Assembly (NCBI GenBank): GCA_017456805.1
Contig: JAFTIQ010000107.1
Span: forward strand, 1-5,266
Reading direction: 5' to 3'
DNA from: Lentisphaeria bacterium
GTDB taxonomy: Bacteria > Verrucomicrobiota > Lentisphaeria > Victivallales > UBA1829
DNA length: 5,266 nucleotides
The notes beneath the pieces are model-generated. The model was not told the DNA's origin, did no database searches, and worked only from the letters and a program-made list of their open reading frames with translations. Numbering within the stretch: position 1 is the first letter of the stretch; every line of letters begins with the position of its first letter. The position numbers were made by a program, and so were the translations under genes. Below are positions 1-5,266 of the stretch, piece after piece.

Positions 1-981
1 CCCCATATCGCTGATAGGGGATTTATAATCGATCAGAGCGCACTCTCCGAGATAACCTGCTGTTTCATCCATGGAGATCATCTTTTCCAGAGCTTCCTGT
101 CCTTTTTCTGCATGGACCTCTACGGCTTTCCCCTGTTCAAAGCGAATGGAAAAGTTTTCGATGAGGGTACCCTGCCAGGAGAGGGGTTTTGAGGAGACGA
201 GGGTTCCTTCAGCTTCGCCTTTTTTCGGGGAGGTAAAGATTTCTTCCGAGGGGATATTTGGATTGAATTCTCTTCTGCTCAAATCTTTTTCGCTGCCGCC
301 TGCAAAGATTCCTTCCGGGATCAGTCCCACGCGGAAATCGGTTCCGTTGGATGCTTTGTATTCCAATGATTTAAAGTGGAACGCATTGAGTTTTTCCGCC
401 CGTGCATGAATGGTTTTGTTGTGTTCTTCCCAGTTGGCGATGGGATCTCCCACGGCGCGGGCGGCATTGAGGATTGCATCCCAGAGTTTTTCCACGGCAT
501 CCGCTTCCGGGATTCCGGGGAAGACTTTTTTTGCCCAATTGATTCCGGGAACTCCTGCGATACACCACTGATGTTTGTTTTCCATGGCATCGCGGAAGGG
601 TTTGATTTTCGGATACCGGGCAGCCTGAGCGCGGGCGCGTTTTCCCTGATCGATCCCATCCATACCGTCGGGATCATCGGAATCCAGCCAGAGGAGAGCA
701 GGCAGGGCTTCTGCGCGCCACTTCCATTTGGCGAGTTCCCATTCCGCAATGCCGGAGAGGGATTCTTCTGTACGGTATTGCTGATCCAGTTTTGCAAGGG
801 GCATATCATCCCATGTGACGACCACTCTGCCGGCTCCGGCAAGGTAGCATTTTTCCACGACCATCCGGACAAATTCCGGCTGATCCAAGCCTGCAATCAC
901 CAATATTTCCTGTCCGGGAACAGGGTTGATCCCGGTTTTTACGATCAAATCTGCGTATGCTTCAAGTTTCTTCTGATCCAT
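1..981 (-). CDS. M29-family metallo-aminopeptidase, 3' end cut off by the window
   Basis: The reading frame is open from an ATG at 981-979 to the left edge: 327 codons with no stop. It begins MDQKKLEAYADLIVKTG. The family (AmpS/AmpT, thermophilic metalloprotease M29) removes N-terminal amino acids from peptides in the cytoplasm using two metal ions. Recognition rests on NPNIPSEEIFTSP at residues 240-252, which holds the first metal-ligand glutamate (E246 or E247; E250 in the Thermus enzyme), and on LGECAL around residue 311-316, with E313 matching E316. The remaining ligands (His, Tyr, His, Asp) lie beyond the window; family members run about 370-410 residues, so some 45-85 residues are missing here. 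An AGGA ribosome site at 992-989, seven bases before the ATG, supports the start. It is the last visible gene of the mcsA-mcsB-kinase operon, 56 bases after the kinase stop codon, and may also have its own promoter. Family call is firm; the substrate is unknown. Confidence 0.9.
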   Translation of the reverse strand, partial: MDQKKLEAYADLIVKTGINPVPGQEILVIAGLDQPEFVRMVVEKCYLAGAGRVVVTWDDMPLAKLDQQYRTEESLSGIAEWELAKWKWRAEALPALLWLDSDDPDGMDGIDQGKRARAQAARYPKIKPFRDAMENKHQWCIAGVPGINWAKKVFPGIPEADAVEKLWDAILNAARAVGDPIANWEEHNKTIHARAEKLNAFHFKSLEYKASNGTDFRVGLIPEGIFAGGSEKDLSRREFNPNIPSEEIFTSPKKGEAEGTLVSSKPLSWQGTLIENFSIRFEQGKAVEVHAEKGQEALEKMISMDETAGYLGECALIDYKSPISDMG

Positions 982-1037: not shown

Positions 1038-2951
1038 TCAATCCTGCACAATCGGGAGAATGAGGGTAAAGGCTGCCCCTGTTCCGTCATAGCTGTATTG
1101 AATCCATCCGTTATGTTCCAGAGCCACACCGTAAGACATGGAAAGTCCCATTCCGGTTCCTTTTCCTGTTGGTTTTGTGGTGAAAAACGGCTCAAAAATC
1201 TTTTCTGCCAATTCTTTCGGGACACCGGGACCGGAATCTTTGACACAGATTCCGCAGAGGTTGTCCAGAGGAATTTTCTTAAGTTCTGCCGGAGGTTTCG
1301 GGATGATATTGATCTCCGTCAGGGTTCCGGCGGAGAGTGTGAGTTTTCTCTGATCTTCGGGCAGAGATTCCATGGCATCACGGGCATTGATGATCAGGTT
1401 GAGCACAGCCTGATTCAGCTGGGTTTCATCACCGAAAACCCGAATGACATCCGGCGAGCATTTTGTATCAATGACGAGTCCGGCTCTGGCATCGGGCAGA
1501 TAGAGTTCCCGGGCATTTTCCAGAATTTTGTTCAATTCAAGAGTCTTGTTCTGGCGGCGTCCTTTCCGGGCGTAGCCGAGAAGCTGACCGGTGAGTTTTG
1601 CCGCCTGCTGGGAGATATTATCGATTTTTTCCAGATGCTGCATATTGCTTTCCGAAGCACCTTCCATATAGATAAGATCCAGATGTCCCTGAATGGCATG
1701 GAGATGGTTGTTGAAGTCATGAGCGATTCCGCCTGCAAGCCTTCCGATCGCTTCGAGCCGCTGACGATGGGCGTGTTCGATTCTCCATGCTTCCCGTTCT
1801 CTGGCGATCCGCTGACGTTCTGTGATATCGCGTCCGATGAAAACGTAAGCGGGCATCCCGGAAAAGTAGATCCTGTTCAGAAGGAATTCCAGTTCTGCGT
1901 CCTTACCGGGAAGTTTGGAACGGATGATTGTACCATCCTCGGGAAGATCCTGCTGGGAGGTCAGAATGGAGATCCCGGCAAGATTTTTCAGGTTTTCGCC
2001 GATGGCATCAGAAATGGTGCTGAGCCCGCATGCTTTCAGTGCCGCATGGTTGGCATCGATCACGATCCCTTTTGAATCCGAAACGAAAATCAGGTCGTCT
2101 GCATTCTGAATAATGGTCCGGCAGCGCTGTTCTGATTCCTGAAGAGTCTGTTCCAGTAATTTGTATTGACCGTATCCGCCGAAGAATGCGACGATGATAT
2201 CCAGTGCGCTCCGGCTGTTTTGGGGGGCATCGAACCGGATTCTGTGAAGGTAAACGGTTGTGATGACAGAGAGCCAGAATGCCAGGAATACCTGCGGAAG
2301 AAGATGAGGCCAGAACTGAAGGATCGCTCCGGGATTCCCCCAGTAATAGACACTGAGAAAAATAACACTGTCGAAGAGCTGTCCGACAAGGATTGCCAGA
2401 AGAACGGAGATGAACATATTGAAATTTCTGTTCCGCATCTGCTGATAGACCATTGGGATCAGAAACAGGTCAAAGGTCAATGCGATAGTGGATGCTGCCA
2501 TGTGTTTGGTTGTCCCGCTGAGGAGATCTTTCAGGAAATCAGCGGTCATGCCGTTGGCGTTTGCAAAATCCGGCGCGGAACTTTCCAGAGTTCCCACGGA
2601 TCTGAGATAAAAAAGCATCCCGAATCCTGCCATGACCGCAATAATGATCCGCTGAGCGGAAAGTGTGCCGTCAACAATATAGATCACCAGAATGATCCCC
2701 AGACTCGGAAGGAGGATCGCGGAACTGGAAACTCCGAGATCCAGAGAGGCTTCGGTGGATAGAAAACGGACTCCTGCCGCCGCCATGAAGTGGGCAAACA
2801 CAATAATAACTCCGAAGGAGAAAAACAGCGGCGGCGAGCCGATGATCTTTCTGAGAGAGTGAAGAATCAGAAGAAATACCAGAATAAAGGTGGATTCCAG
2901 CCAGATCAGACCGTAGCTGAAAAGGGAGTCTATTGTAAAGAGTTCCGTCAT
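1038..2951 (-). CDS. Membrane sensor histidine kinase: YhhQ/VUT-like seven-helix domain, PAS, HisKA, HATPase
   Basis: The protein has 637 residues. Residues 1-240 hold about seven hydrophobic segments (roughly 9-30, 42-62, 76-95, 98-117, 149-170, 177-203, 212-238). A PAS domain follows (about 265-380, ending GRDITERQ), then a helical linker, the HisKA domain with GGIAHDFNNHL (phosphoacceptor H411), and a HATPase domain with the N box NLIINARDAM (N522), G1 DSGPGVP (572-578), F box FEPFFTTK and G2 GKGTGMGLSM (596-605). All ATP-binding boxes are intact, so it should autophosphorylate. There is no receiver domain and no response regulator in the window, so it is an orphan here. The membrane part resembles YhhQ/VUT transporters in helix pattern and in two stretches (see findings). 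The start overlaps the mcsB stop as ATGA (2951-2948) with only a weak GGGA upstream, implying translational coupling to mcsB. Kinase identity is firm; the stimulus is unknown. Confidence 0.93.
   Translation of the reverse strand: MTELFTIDSLFSYGLIWLESTFILVFLLILHSLRKIIGSPPLFFSFGVIIVFAHFMAAAGVRFLSTEASLDLGVSSSAILLPSLGIILVIYIVDGTLSAQRIIIAVMAGFGMLFYLRSVGTLESSAPDFANANGMTADFLKDLLSGTTKHMAASTIALTFDLFLIPMVYQQMRNRNFNMFISVLLAILVGQLFDSVIFLSVYYWGNPGAILQFWPHLLPQVFLAFWLSVITTVYLHRIRFDAPQNSRSALDIIVAFFGGYGQYKLLEQTLQESEQRCRTIIQNADDLIFVSDSKGIVIDANHAALKACGLSTISDAIGENLKNLAGISILTSQQDLPEDGTIIRSKLPGKDAELEFLLNRIYFSGMPAYVFIGRDITERQRIAREREAWRIEHAHRQRLEAIGRLAGGIAHDFNNHLHAIQGHLDLIYMEGASESNMQHLEKIDNISQQAAKLTGQLLGYARKGRRQNKTLELNKILENARELYLPDARAGLVIDTKCSPDVIRVFGDETQLNQAVLNLIINARDAMESLPEDQRKLTLSAGTLTEINIIPKPPAELKKIPLDNLCGICVKDSGPGVPKELAEKIFEPFFTTKPTGKGTGMGLSMSYGVALEHNGWIQYSYDGTGAAFTLILPIVQD
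2948..2951 (-). other. ATGA stop/start overlap of mcsB and the histidine kinase
   Basis: The mcsB stop TGA (2950-2948) shares bases with the kinase start ATG (2951-2949). The upstream sequence has only a weak Shine-Dalgarno match (GGGA), so ribosomes finishing mcsB probably reinitiate on the kinase. This ties the amount of the two proteins together. Confidence 0.85.
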
Positions 2952-4018
2952 AATTTTTCCCGTAAATCTTTCAGGGTCCCGCGGATGACGGCTGCCCGTT
3001 CCACTTCACGTTCTTCCTCATTGAGTTCTTTCCCGGCATGACAGATCAAATGAGCCTGCTGCACCAGAAGGAAAAGATTGTTGACCGCATTGATATCCAC
3101 AGAGGAGAACATATTCAAGTCTACTCCCAGACGGAGGGCGGAAAGAGCATCCAGAGCTTCCCGGATCTGAAGTTTATAGCAGTAACGCAGCATGCCGTAT
3201 GCCCTGCCTACATGATCCAGAAGGAAATCCCGCTTTCTGGAAAGGAGATACATTCTTGCCTCTTTTTCATGCCGGATGATCTGCCGGATCAACCCGTTCA
3301 GACGGAAGATGATCTGTTCTTCGCTTTCCCCCAGGGAACTCTGATTGGAGATCTGATAAAGATTTCCGGTGAAATGGGAGGTTGAGCCATAGAACCCGCA
3401 AGCGGTCATTCCCAGTTTAGAGACCCCCTGGATCACCCCGTTGATTTTTTCAGAAAGCTGCAATCCGGGCAGATGCAGGATCACCGAGGCGCACATCCCT
3501 GTTCCAAGATCCGATGGGCTGGAGGTGAGATAGCCGAAAGTCTTATCAAACGCAAATTCCAGTTCGGAGGAAAGTTTGTCATCCAGAACATTCAGCCGGT
3601 CCCAAATCACCGGGAGCTGGAGCCCCGGCGCAAGAGACTGGATCCGCAGATGATCCTCCCCGTTGATCATGATGGAGACGGATTCATTTTTCTCAGCGAC
3701 CAGAGCAGACTCCTGAGATTCTTTCAAAAATGTTTTGCTGATCAGACGGCGTTCCAGAAGCAGCTGTTTTTCCAGCGGATTCAGATTGGGATAATCGATG
3801 TTCATAGGCTCTGCAATGGATTCCGTTCGGTTCAAGGCATCCAGACACATTCCGCAGACGTTCTGAAGAGTTGCTTTTTCTCCGGAGACGGGGAACGGCA
3901 TATCCTTCAGATTCCGGGCAAGCCGGATTCCGGTGCTTATGACAATATCATCTTCCGGTCCGGCAGGAGCAAGCCAGCTGACAGGATTCCGGATCAGGCA
4001 GGAGAGATCATTTTTCAT
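2948..4018 (-). CDS. mcsB: McsB homologue (protein-arginine kinase family) with degenerate active site
   Basis: The start is the ATG at 4018-4016, nine bases after a strong GGAGG (4032-4028), giving 356 residues (Bacillus subtilis McsB: 363). An upstream ATG at 4105 lies deep inside mcsA and has no such support. McsB phosphorylates arginines on proteins to mark them for ClpCP and also acts as a Clp adaptor. Family features include IRLARN (31-36), NPLEKQLLLERRLIS (80-94), EDHLRI (121-126), LGTG..ASV (171-179), QISNQ (222-226) and a C-terminal REVERAAVIR (337-346) close to the RDxxRA phosphoarginine pocket. In arginine-kinase numbering, R126, E225 and R229 remain (R32, E121, R125). However R124 is G30, R280 is C176, R309 is C207, E314 is S212 and C271 is S167. 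Kinase activity is therefore doubtful; an adaptor or phosphoarginine-binding role is an inference. Homology is clear. Confidence 0.9.
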   Translation of the reverse strand: MKNDLSCLIRNPVSWLAPAGPEDDIVISTGIRLARNLKDMPFPVSGEKATLQNVCGMCLDALNRTESIAEPMNIDYPNLNPLEKQLLLERRLISKTFLKESQESALVAEKNESVSIMINGEDHLRIQSLAPGLQLPVIWDRLNVLDDKLSSELEFAFDKTFGYLTSSPSDLGTGMCASVILHLPGLQLSEKINGVIQGVSKLGMTACGFYGSTSHFTGNLYQISNQSSLGESEEQIIFRLNGLIRQIIRHEKEARMYLLSRKRDFLLDHVGRAYGMLRYCYKLQIREALDALSALRLGVDLNMFSSVDINAVNNLFLLVQQAHLICHAGKELNEEEREVERAAVIRGTLKDLREKL

Positions 4019-4577
4019 TCTGGAGTGCCTCCAATTCTTTCTGCATCTGATTGATCTTGTCCCGGAGCTCTGCGGCTTCTTCATACCGTTCTGCTGCGAT
4101 GGCATCCTGCAGTTCCGACTGAGTGTGTTTGAGATTCATCTGGAGCAGGGATATGGAAGGCTTTTTCCGCTTTTTTGCGGGAGAACCCGCCGGAAGCGGA
4201 TGTTTGCCGGTGTGACTCGTCCCCCTGTGCATGGTGTCAATCGTCTGTTCCAGTACCTTCCGGAATGCCCGGTAACAATCCGGACAACCCATTTTTCCTG
4301 TTTTCTGAAAAGATTCGCTATCCCAGCCGCAGGACTTGCAGACGATTTTTTTCATGGGCGGCGGCATCTTCCCTTTTTCTTCCTGCTGGATCTGATTTCC
4401 GATCTGACTGGACAGCTGAAGCAGGACTTCCGCCAGATTGAAGTCCTGAAAATTTCCATTTTCCTTTGCCCGCTTTTCAGCGCACTGGGCACAAAGATGA
4501 AGCACTTTTTTTTCTGATCCGATGATCTCCTGAATGTGGATCGTCGCCGGATTTTTTCCGCATATACTGCAAAGCAT
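4008..4577 (-). CDS. mcsA: McsA-like zinc-finger protein with UVR domain, McsB partner
   Basis: The protein has 189 residues starting MLCSICGKN. In Bacilli McsA binds and activates McsB and links it to ClpC under heat, metal or oxidative stress. Two four-cysteine zinc sites are visible: C3/C6 with C29/C32, and C80/C83 with C98/C101 (VCKSCGW and GCPDCYRAF). The HRGTSHTGKHP stretch (117-127) is typical of the family, followed by a basic linker (AKKRKK) and a C-terminal UVR coiled coil (about 143-186; AIAAERYEEAAELRDKI). All cysteines are present, so the protein looks functional, unlike its partner's active site. The start at 4577 has AGGAG (4588-4584) six bases upstream; the alternative ATG at 4613 has no ribosome site and would lie only about 11 bases after the predicted transcription start. 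It is first in the operon and overlaps mcsB by 11 bases. No ctsR precedes it. Confidence 0.93.
   Translation of the reverse strand: MLCSICGKNPATIHIQEIIGSEKKVLHLCAQCAEKRAKENGNFQDFNLAEVLLQLSSQIGNQIQQEEKGKMPPPMKKIVCKSCGWDSESFQKTGKMGCPDCYRAFRKVLEQTIDTMHRGTSHTGKHPLPAGSPAKKRKKPSISLLQMNLKHTQSELQDAIAAERYEEAAELRDKINQMQKELEALQNEK
4028..4032 (-). promoter_or_regulatory. Ribosome binding site of mcsB (GGAGG), decides the start
   Basis: GGAGG on the minus strand lies inside the last codons of mcsA, nine bases before the ATG at 4018. It selects this ATG over the in-frame ATG at 4105 and yields a protein of normal family length. The mcsB ATG precedes the mcsA TGA (4010-4008), so the genes overlap by 11 bases and are likely translated in coordination. 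Confidence 0.85.
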
Positions 4578-4583
4578 TTTATT

Positions 4584-4588
4584 CTCCT
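4584..4588 (-). promoter_or_regulatory. Ribosome binding site of mcsA (AGGAG), decides the start
   Basis: AGGAG lies six bases before the ATG at 4577, directly in front of the first zinc-finger cysteine codons. It favours this start over the in-frame ATG at 4613, which has no comparable signal. Confidence 0.8.
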
Positions 4589-4630
4589 GATCTTTCGGCA
4601 GAGAGTTCAACATTACTTATTTCTTCAGGA

Positions 4631-4848: not shown

Positions 4849-5266
4849 ATGGATCAGAATCATTTATATCCTTTGCGCTTTCAGCCGTATTATAAACCCG
4901 TTATGTGGGGCGGCGGAAATCTGAAAAAAGTATTGAACAGAACCTTGCCTGAAAATACATCGGATCCCATCGGGGAAGCATGGGAACTCTGCGACCGGGA
5001 AGATGTTCAGAGCGTTGTGCTGAATGGTCCCCTTGCAGGAAAAACCATCACCGAACTTGTGCAAAATTATGGAACTGAACTGCTCGGAACAAAATTTCAG
5101 GGCGGAAGATTCCCGCTTCTGATCAAAATTATCGATGCCGGACAGAAACTTTCTCTTCAGGTGCATCCCGATGAAGAGGCTTGCGGACGGATCGGAAACG
5201 GTGCTCAGCCGAAAACCGAAATGTGGTACATCATCCATGCAGATCCTGGCGCAAAGATCATTGCCG
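4849..5266 (+). CDS. manA: Mannose-6-phosphate isomerase, 3' end cut off by the window
   Basis: The frame is open from the ATG at 4849 to the right edge: 139 codons and one extra base. AAGGA (4835-4839) lies nine bases before the ATG. The enzyme interconverts mannose 6-phosphate and fructose 6-phosphate in the cytoplasm, linking mannose use or GDP-mannose supply to glycolysis. Typical landmarks of the short bacterial type I enzyme are visible: YYKPVMWGGGNL (14-25), GEAWELCD (42-49), FPLLIKIIDA (88-97), LSLQVHPDE (101-109) with zinc ligands Q104 and H106, and KTEMWYII (122-129) with zinc ligand E124. The last zinc-ligand histidine and the catalytic arginine region lie beyond the window; the family is usually about 310-320 residues or longer. 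It is transcribed away from the mcsA operon and has no evident functional link with it. Confidence 0.92.
   Translation, partial: MDQNHLYPLRFQPYYKPVMWGGGNLKKVLNRTLPENTSDPIGEAWELCDREDVQSVVLNGPLAGKTITELVQNYGTELLGTKFQGGRFPLLIKIIDAGQKLSLQVHPDEEACGRIGNGAQPKTEMWYIIHADPGAKIIA

What the first reader, a model, noticed from the sequence alone, without database searches (positions are those of the whole stretch)
2948..4018. McsB homologue lacking key ATP-binding and catalytic residues: a likely pseudokinase or pure adaptor
Seen in sequence: the five phosphate-binding arginines of arginine kinase (R124, R126, R229, R280, R309) correspond here to G30, R32, R125, C176 and C207. One of the two catalytic glutamates (E225, E314) is kept as E121 while the other is S212, and the reactive cysteine C271 is S167. 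The codons were read directly: GGA at residue 30, TGC at 176 and 207. The fold motifs, the length and the C-terminal REVERA (close to the RDxxRA phosphoarginine pocket) are intact, the frame is open, and the gene is in a tight operon with an intact mcsA, so it is under selection and not decaying. Inference: it may bind rather than make phosphoarginine, or deliver clients to a Clp protease, or use another chemistry.
Basis: partly seen in the sequence, partly recalled or inferred. Interest (0 to 1): 0.75.

Follow-up and report, generated by a model that had tools for sequence, protein, structure and literature searches.

The report
Kinase-dead McsB kept beside McsA
A bacterial enzyme that normally tags proteins with phosphate on arginine has here lost most of its chemical machinery but kept its predicted fold and its partner, and similar losses turn up separately in other bacteria, which suggests the protein has a second job.

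Summary
Window 2948-4018 (-) encodes a 356-residue McsB homologue with G30, S167, C176, C207 and S212 where active McsB has R, C, R, R and E. In Bacillus subtilis McsB, R29K, R176K and R207K each abolish the kinase signal and C167S is the kinase-inactive allele (PMC7235348), so this protein is very probably not an arginine kinase. It belongs to a Lentisphaerota clade in which active-site residues were lost in three lineages, with intact sisters between them. Outside the active site it is still constrained, but more loosely than intact sisters, and its fold is predicted to be normal. 109 of 119 full-length homologues examined keep all eight residues. Best reading: a pseudokinase kept for a kinase-independent role with McsA, holding clients or repressors or serving a Clp ATPase. 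The phosphoarginine-reader part of the first idea is weaker, because D338 of that pocket is also changed. The main rival is slow decay under relaxed selection.

The parts
2948..4018 (-). mcsB-like pseudokinase gene, 356 aa
   Evidence: PF00217 E 2.5e-56; best solved relative 6fh1 255.6 bits
3929..3931 (-). codon 30, GGA (G); R29 of B. subtilis McsB
3659..3661 (-). codon 120, GGG (G); E in all 56 outgroup representatives
3656..3658 (-). codon 121, GAG (E), catalytic Glu kept
3644..3646 (-). codon 125, CGG (R), kept
3518..3520 (-). codon 167, AGC (S); C167 of McsB
3491..3493 (-). codon 176, TGC (C); R176 of McsB
3398..3400 (-). codon 207, TGC (C); R207 of McsB
2993..3010 (-). REVERA, the phosphoarginine-pocket motif RDxxRA with D338 changed to E
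   Evidence: motif from PMC7235348
4008..4577 (-). mcsA, 189 aa from the internal ATG, four CxxC pairs kept, overlaps mcsB by 11 bp
   Evidence: NF053706 E 1.4e-33, 116 of 210 bits cut-off; zinc-finger alignment; junction
1038..2951 (-). sensor histidine kinase (VUPS, PAS, HisKA, HATPase), overlaps mcsB by 4 bp
   Evidence: a neighbour, link to McsB not shown

Best explanation
The gene encodes a pseudokinase that descends from the protein-arginine kinase McsB. Shown: five of eight key ATP-binding or catalytic residues are changed, the ORF and most conserved positions are kept, and mcsA with its zinc-finger cysteines is in the same overlapping operon. Inferred: it no longer transfers phosphate to arginine and probably binds ATP poorly or not at all. 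Also inferred: it persists because the McsA-McsB complex has a kinase-independent use, in which McsB holds a client or regulator and is docked or released through McsA's zinc fingers, possibly passing clients to a Clp ATPase. This would use the adaptor and partner-switch side of McsB described in B. subtilis without the phosphoarginine mark.
For: Residues. R29K, R125K, R176K and R207K each abolished the B. subtilis McsB kinase signal, and the kinase-inactive C167S strain still turned over MgsR somewhat faster than the deletion (12.3 against 17.7 min), read by its authors as a kinase-independent adaptor role (PMC7235348, passages and section 7). Removal of CtsR from DNA by McsB freed from oxidised McsA, when McsB is not active as a kinase, is described in PMC5506225 (passages). 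Clade: the window protein and P0003-P0007 form one group (100/99), with separate losses in P0011 (S167, Q207; sister to intact P0009) and P0012 (Q121, Q125, S167; sister to intact P0010). Constraint: changes at conserved non-active-site positions occur at 0.23-0.39 of the rate at variable ones in the seven pseudokinase pairs tested, against about 1 if neutral; P0001-P0012 are all 356 aa with no indel between them. In P0001 changes hit 5 of 8 active-site positions against 7 of 86 other conserved ones (p = 0.0007). Fold: pLDDT 89.2, pTM 0.88; best PDB match by E-value 6fh1_B, TM 0.90. The stretch matching the McsA-docking loop, about 157-163, is kept. Recurrence: degenerate McsBs in G052, G011, G061 and G131, each the only McsB match in its genome and lying between mcsA and a clpC-like gene.
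Against: No genome is held for the window, so a second intact McsB, ClpC, CtsR or YwlE cannot be looked for. Constraint is looser than in intact sisters: ratio 0.23-0.39 against 0.16-0.21, and the P0011 McsB branch is 0.160 against 0.034 in P0009 while their McsA branches are 0.195 and 0.169. D338 of the phosphoarginine pocket is changed too. In B. subtilis, ClpC activation by McsB is reported to need kinase activity (PMC5506225). The active-site excess is significant at 0.05 for P0001, P0003, P0005, P0006 and P0007 but not for P0004 (p = 0.06), P0011 (0.24) or P0012 (0.11), with no correction for several tests.
Confidence: 0.6

Rival explanations
1. The gene is on its way out. Arginine phosphorylation became dispensable in this lineage, and McsB is drifting slowly to loss with no remaining function.
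For: Three losses in one clade; McsB sped up after loss in P0011 (branch 0.160 against 0.034 in P0009 while McsA is even); conserved-site constraint weaker than in intact sisters; most of the amino-acid changes can be reached by one base change (own reading of the code; relatives' DNA not seen).
Against: P0001-P0012 are all 356 aa without indels, the pseudokinases at 73-82% identity to the window; substitutions still avoid conserved sites about threefold; to the outgroup, the McsB/McsA distance ratio of the pseudokinases (0.44-0.45) is hardly above that of intact P0009 (0.42); R337, R341 and the McsA loop are kept; degenerate McsBs elsewhere stay full length beside clpC. Protein searches favour intact ORFs, which biases this.
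Confidence: 0.25
2. It still catalyses, either weakly with rearranged residues or with another chemistry.
For: E121, R125, R32 and R35 remain; C167S or C167Y occurs in otherwise intact McsBs (L002, L003, L043, L044), so C167 alone may not be decisive.
Against: Three phosphate arginines and one catalytic Glu are lost together; single Lys substitutions of the matching arginines killed B. subtilis McsB; no compensating basic residue next to them in sequence.
Confidence: 0.08
3. It binds phosphoarginine made by another enzyme and acts as a reader.
For: R337 and R341 are kept; L040 (G052) keeps the full RDxxRA with a ruined active site.
Against: D338 is E in the window and P0003 and N in P0004-P0007 and P0041, but D in P0008-P0012; no source of phosphoarginine is known in this organism (no genome held).
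Confidence: 0.1

Closest known systems
McsB protein-arginine kinase (B. subtilis, G. stearothermophilus, S. aureus)
   Same: Length, PF00217 domain plus C-terminal dimerisation domain, predicted fold (TM 0.90 to 6fh1_B), mcsA beside it
   Different: Lacks R29, C167, R176, R207 and E212 equivalents; D338 is E; scores under the NCBIfam protein-arginine-kinase cut-offs
Kinase-inactive McsB C167S laboratory mutant (PMC7235348)
   Same: No kinase activity expected; the mutant kept some adaptor function for MgsR, according to its authors
   Different: Natural, with several residues lost, shared by a group of relatives
Bacterial Ser/Thr pseudokinases (PMC12599244; start of abstract and McsB passages only)
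   Same: Kinase-derived proteins without catalytic residues
   Different: Unrelated fold (recalled); McsB occurs in that paper only in its reference list
   Same: Active site lost, full length, mcsA beside them, only McsB match of the genome
   Different: Much longer branches and clpC-like gene adjacent; separate from the window's clade

Membership tests
McsB, by descent | PF00217 guanido phosphotransferase domain over the gathering score | tested here: met
   190.7 bits against 22.4
McsB, by descent | McsB-type fold with C-terminal dimerisation domain | tested here: met
   model m4e12925be24c, best match 6fh1_B, TM 0.90; a prediction, not a solved structure
McsB, by descent | mcsA beside mcsB | tested here: met
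Protein-arginine kinase (functional McsB) | Eight active-site residues | tested here: not met
   3 of 8 kept (R32, E121, R125)
Protein-arginine kinase (functional McsB) | NCBIfam equivalog cut-off | tested here: not met
   362.8 of 385 bits (NF002194), 339.9 of 500 (NF053707). Intact sisters P0008-P0010 pass 385 and so does pseudokinase P0004 at 389.3; none of the ten tested passes 500, so the cut-offs are only a weak guide
Protein-arginine kinase (functional McsB) | RDxxRA phosphoarginine pocket | tested here: inconclusive
   R337 and R341 kept, D338 is E; some McsBs with intact active sites also vary at 337 or 338
Protein-arginine kinase (functional McsB) | Arginine kinase activity | not testable with these tools
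   needs purified protein
ClpC adaptor | Binding to McsA, ClpC and clients | not testable with these tools
   no genome for the window; gene context only in other genomes

The most novel reading that the evidence does not exclude
McsB has an ancient kinase-independent core job that outlives the phosphoarginine mark, so lineages repeatedly discard the chemistry and keep the McsA-McsB pair as a pure binding and redox partner switch. In the window's branch the emptied phosphate pocket, with cysteines at 176 and 207 in place of two arginines, may itself have become a thiol or metal site.
Probability: 0.2. Interest if true: 0.8.

Novelty: new variant of a known kind. Interest (0 to 1): 0.62.

Why it matters
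Whether McsB is needed as a kinase, as an adaptor or as both is unsettled in the papers read here. Natural McsBs that lost the chemistry but stayed beside mcsA, and elsewhere beside clpC, offer ready-made separation-of-function proteins. If they bind McsA and clients, the adaptor role is real and separable; if they bind nothing, the adaptor idea weakens. They also warn that 'protein arginine kinase' annotations and phosphoarginine predictions should not be made from family membership alone.

Tried and rejected
Sequencing error or frameshifted pseudogene: rejected, because a near-identical protein comes from another contig and relatives share the changes. Contig-edge fragments: several 234-241 aa McsBs begin at the internal Met 117 and look like partial genes, not a truncated form. 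McsA gene counts as a sign of McsB loss: abandoned, cluster counts are not comparable. Relatives in viral contigs: none. ClpC phosphoarginine-pocket residues E32 and E106 as a discriminator: read by eye, both kept in G052, G011 and G049, not the first in G061; they also affect the resting state, so uninformative. Second model, of intact P0009: same overall confidence (89.3 against 89.2), somewhat higher around 161-170 (90 against 80) and 211-220 (78 against 69); too weak to use. Codon-level selection tests could not be done for the Lentisphaerota clade, because only its proteins were available.

Full report
What is there. The window carries, on the minus strand, mcsA (4008-4577, 189 aa from its internal ATG), mcsB (2948-4018, 356 aa) and a sensor histidine kinase (1038-2951). 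mcsA and mcsB overlap by 11 bp, mcsB and the kinase by 4 bp. The genes recognised in the window include no ctsR or clpC, and no whole genome is held for it. The source is most likely a Lentisphaerota bacterium, because the relatives that carry an organism name in the listing are Lentisphaerae, Lentisphaerota, Lentisphaeria, Victivallales or Victivallaceae.

The observation. Alignment to solved McsB structures and the codons themselves confirm G30, R32, E121, R125, S167, C176, C207 and S212. These correspond to R29, R31, E121, R125, C167, R176, R207 and E212 of B. subtilis McsB. In that protein R29K, R31K, R34K, R125K, R176K, R207K and R337K gave no phosphoprotein signal, and C167S is used as the kinase-inactive allele (PMC7235348, passages and section 7). 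The window protein therefore combines several changes of which single ones at the same positions (to Lys, or C167S) suffice to stop the enzyme.

How unusual it is. One search lists the best 120 of 7988 hits. With the window and without P0002 (99.7% identical to it) and the partial P0041, 119 full-length proteins remain, and 109 keep all eight residues. Eight of the other ten belong to the window's own clade; the remaining two each have one change. Among the 119 further partial McsBs listed, all keep E121, R125, C167, R176, R207 and E212: the non-consensus residues counted, which also included nine known rows, all belong to those known clade rows. Both lists are the hits most similar to the query, not a random sample.

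History. In the tree of 32 proteins the six pseudokinases (window, P0003-P0007) form one group (100/99). All have S167 and C176. P0004-P0007 have K212 and N338; the window and P0003 have C207, S212 and E338; the window alone of the six has G30. P0011 (S167, Q207) is sister to intact P0009, and P0012 (Q121, Q125, S167) is sister to intact P0010. The simplest reading is three separate losses in one clade.

Constraint. Among 94 positions conserved at 97% or more in 56 outgroup representatives (thinned from 108), the window protein differs at 5 of the 8 active-site positions and 7 of the 86 others (p = 0.0007). The intact sisters P0008-P0010 differ at 0 of 8 and 5 to 8 of 86. The test is weaker for other members: P0003 0.008, P0005 and P0007 0.037, P0006 0.049, P0004 0.06, P0012 0.11, P0011 0.24, without correction for several tests. 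Between pseudokinases, changes at conserved non-active-site positions run at 0.23-0.39 of the rate at variable positions (seven pairs). The three intact ingroup pairs give 0.16-0.21, and the pairs P0009-P0011 and P0010-P0012 give 0.32 and 0.50. Nine intact outgroup pairs give 0.00-0.16, but they helped define the conserved set. P0001-P0012 are all 356 aa and align without any gap.

McsB against McsA. McsA and McsB were paired by equal longest-contig length, an inference. McsB-to-McsA distance ratios are 0.51-0.94 among the six pairs of four pseudokinases and 0.48 on average (0.33-0.80) among outgroup pairs. Measured to the outgroup the difference almost vanishes: 0.44-0.45 for the pseudokinases, 0.42 for intact P0009. 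In the cleanest contrast, P0011 against P0009, the McsB branch is 0.160 against 0.034 while McsA is 0.195 against 0.169. So the protein is constrained, but probably less than an active McsB.

Structure. The AlphaFold model has pLDDT 89.2 and pTM 0.88. Its best PDB matches are McsB structures, for example 6fh1_B with TM 0.90 and 6tv6_D with 0.91. The loop that McsA's zinc finger contacts, S. aureus Y147-Y153 according to the review PMC12467219 (section 15), corresponds to about 157-163 here and is kept. The window's McsA keeps its four CxxC pairs.

Other lineages. I used G001, the genome of locus L001 (record title: uncultured Clostridia bacterium), as centre. In a sample of its class 44 of 60 genomes have a McsB match. 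Residues were checked for 43 distinct proteins: the 30 automatic loci, 11 regions that I fetched, and the loci; the partial matches in G014, G023 and G031 were not checked. Three are clearly degenerate: L040 (G052, 6 of 8 changed, RDxxRA intact), L046 (G011, 6 of 8) and L047 (G061, 8 of 8; so diverged that single columns are uncertain). L045 (G049) has S167 and H212. In a sample of its phylum 236 of 249 genomes have a match. I checked 30 of the best and 30 low-scoring ones, of which L132 is only an N-terminal fragment and L131 ends near residue 216; of the other 176 genomes only G001 and G034 had been seen. One more is clear, L127 (G131, 5 of 8). L122 and L125 are borderline, each with four changes of which two are D for E. 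Each clear case is its genome's only McsB match; completeness of these genomes is not told.

Their surroundings. L046 (G011), L071 (G061) and L127 (G131) have the order ctsR-mcsA-mcsB-clpC, with CtsR confirmed by Pfam, and so has L072 (G049). L070 (G052) has mcsA-mcsB-clpC without ctsR next to it. The ClpC-like protein in G061 has no recognised Clp_N domain, and the ClpC of G131 is cut by the end of the locus. On a tree of 114 McsBs built without the active-site columns, the degenerate label (12 rows, including L045 and L125 but not L122) needs 8 changes, of which well-supported branches force 6. That tree is a quick one, and L046 and L047 are long branches that may be falsely joined.

Mechanism. 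Shown: active-site loss, retained constraint outside it, retained operon with mcsA, recurrence beside clpC in other genomes. Inferred: no phosphoarginine is made, and the protein acts through binding. Two kinase-independent activities of McsB are described for B. subtilis: some adaptor function in the C167S strain (PMC7235348) and removal of CtsR from DNA when McsA is oxidised (PMC5506225, passages). The same review reports that ClpC activation by McsB needs kinase activity, so a pseudokinase probably would not activate ClpC in the B. subtilis way. For the window itself the client is unknown. The overlapping histidine kinase is a neighbour only.

Literature. Searches for McsB with pseudokinase, Lentisphaer, catalytically inactive and pseudoenzyme, for Victivall with arginine kinase, and for phosphagen kinase with pseudokinase listed no title or start of abstract that describes a natural McsB pseudokinase. 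Passages of PMC5177608 and PMC10128030 treat chlamydial McsB as a putative kinase of untested function. The library holds only openly licensed papers, so the original McsB structure papers were not read, apart from passages of PMC8370763. Prior report elsewhere cannot be excluded.

Noticed in passing
window 1038-2951: A sensor histidine kinase with a VUPS (vitamin uptake-like sensor) domain, PAS, HisKA and HATPase overlaps mcsB by 4 bp; translational coupling with McsA-McsB is possible.
   Followed up: no
window 4008-4613: The mechanical ORF of mcsA starts 12 codons upstream of the likely start; relatives of about 187-192 aa support the internal ATG at 4577.
   Followed up: partly
window residue G194 of mcsB: R194, whose phosphorylation tethers the B. 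subtilis McsB octamer (PMC8370763, passages), is G here and never R in the 121 proteins (84 are A), including intact kinases.
   Followed up: partly
L040 / L070 8138-9178 (G052): McsB with six of eight active-site residues lost but a complete RDxxRA phosphoarginine-pocket motif: a better candidate for a phosphoarginine reader than the window protein.
   Followed up: partly
L043, L044, L002, L003: McsBs with S or Y at the reactive cysteine 167 but the other seven active-site residues intact, so loss of C167 alone need not mean loss of activity.
   Followed up: no
L071 5912-8590 (G061): Beside a strongly degenerate McsB, a ClpC-like ATPase of 892 aa in which no Clp_N domain is recognised.
   Followed up: no
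G230:C97:19574-20616: mcsB is split between two overlapping matches, a possible frameshift or assembly error.
   Followed up: no
P0049: Protein looks chimeric: first part like P0017, later part like another Lentisphaerota McsB.
   Followed up: no
window 2-981 and 4849-5265: M29 aminopeptidase (cut by the window edge) and the start of a mannose-6-phosphate isomerase on the other strand.
   Followed up: no
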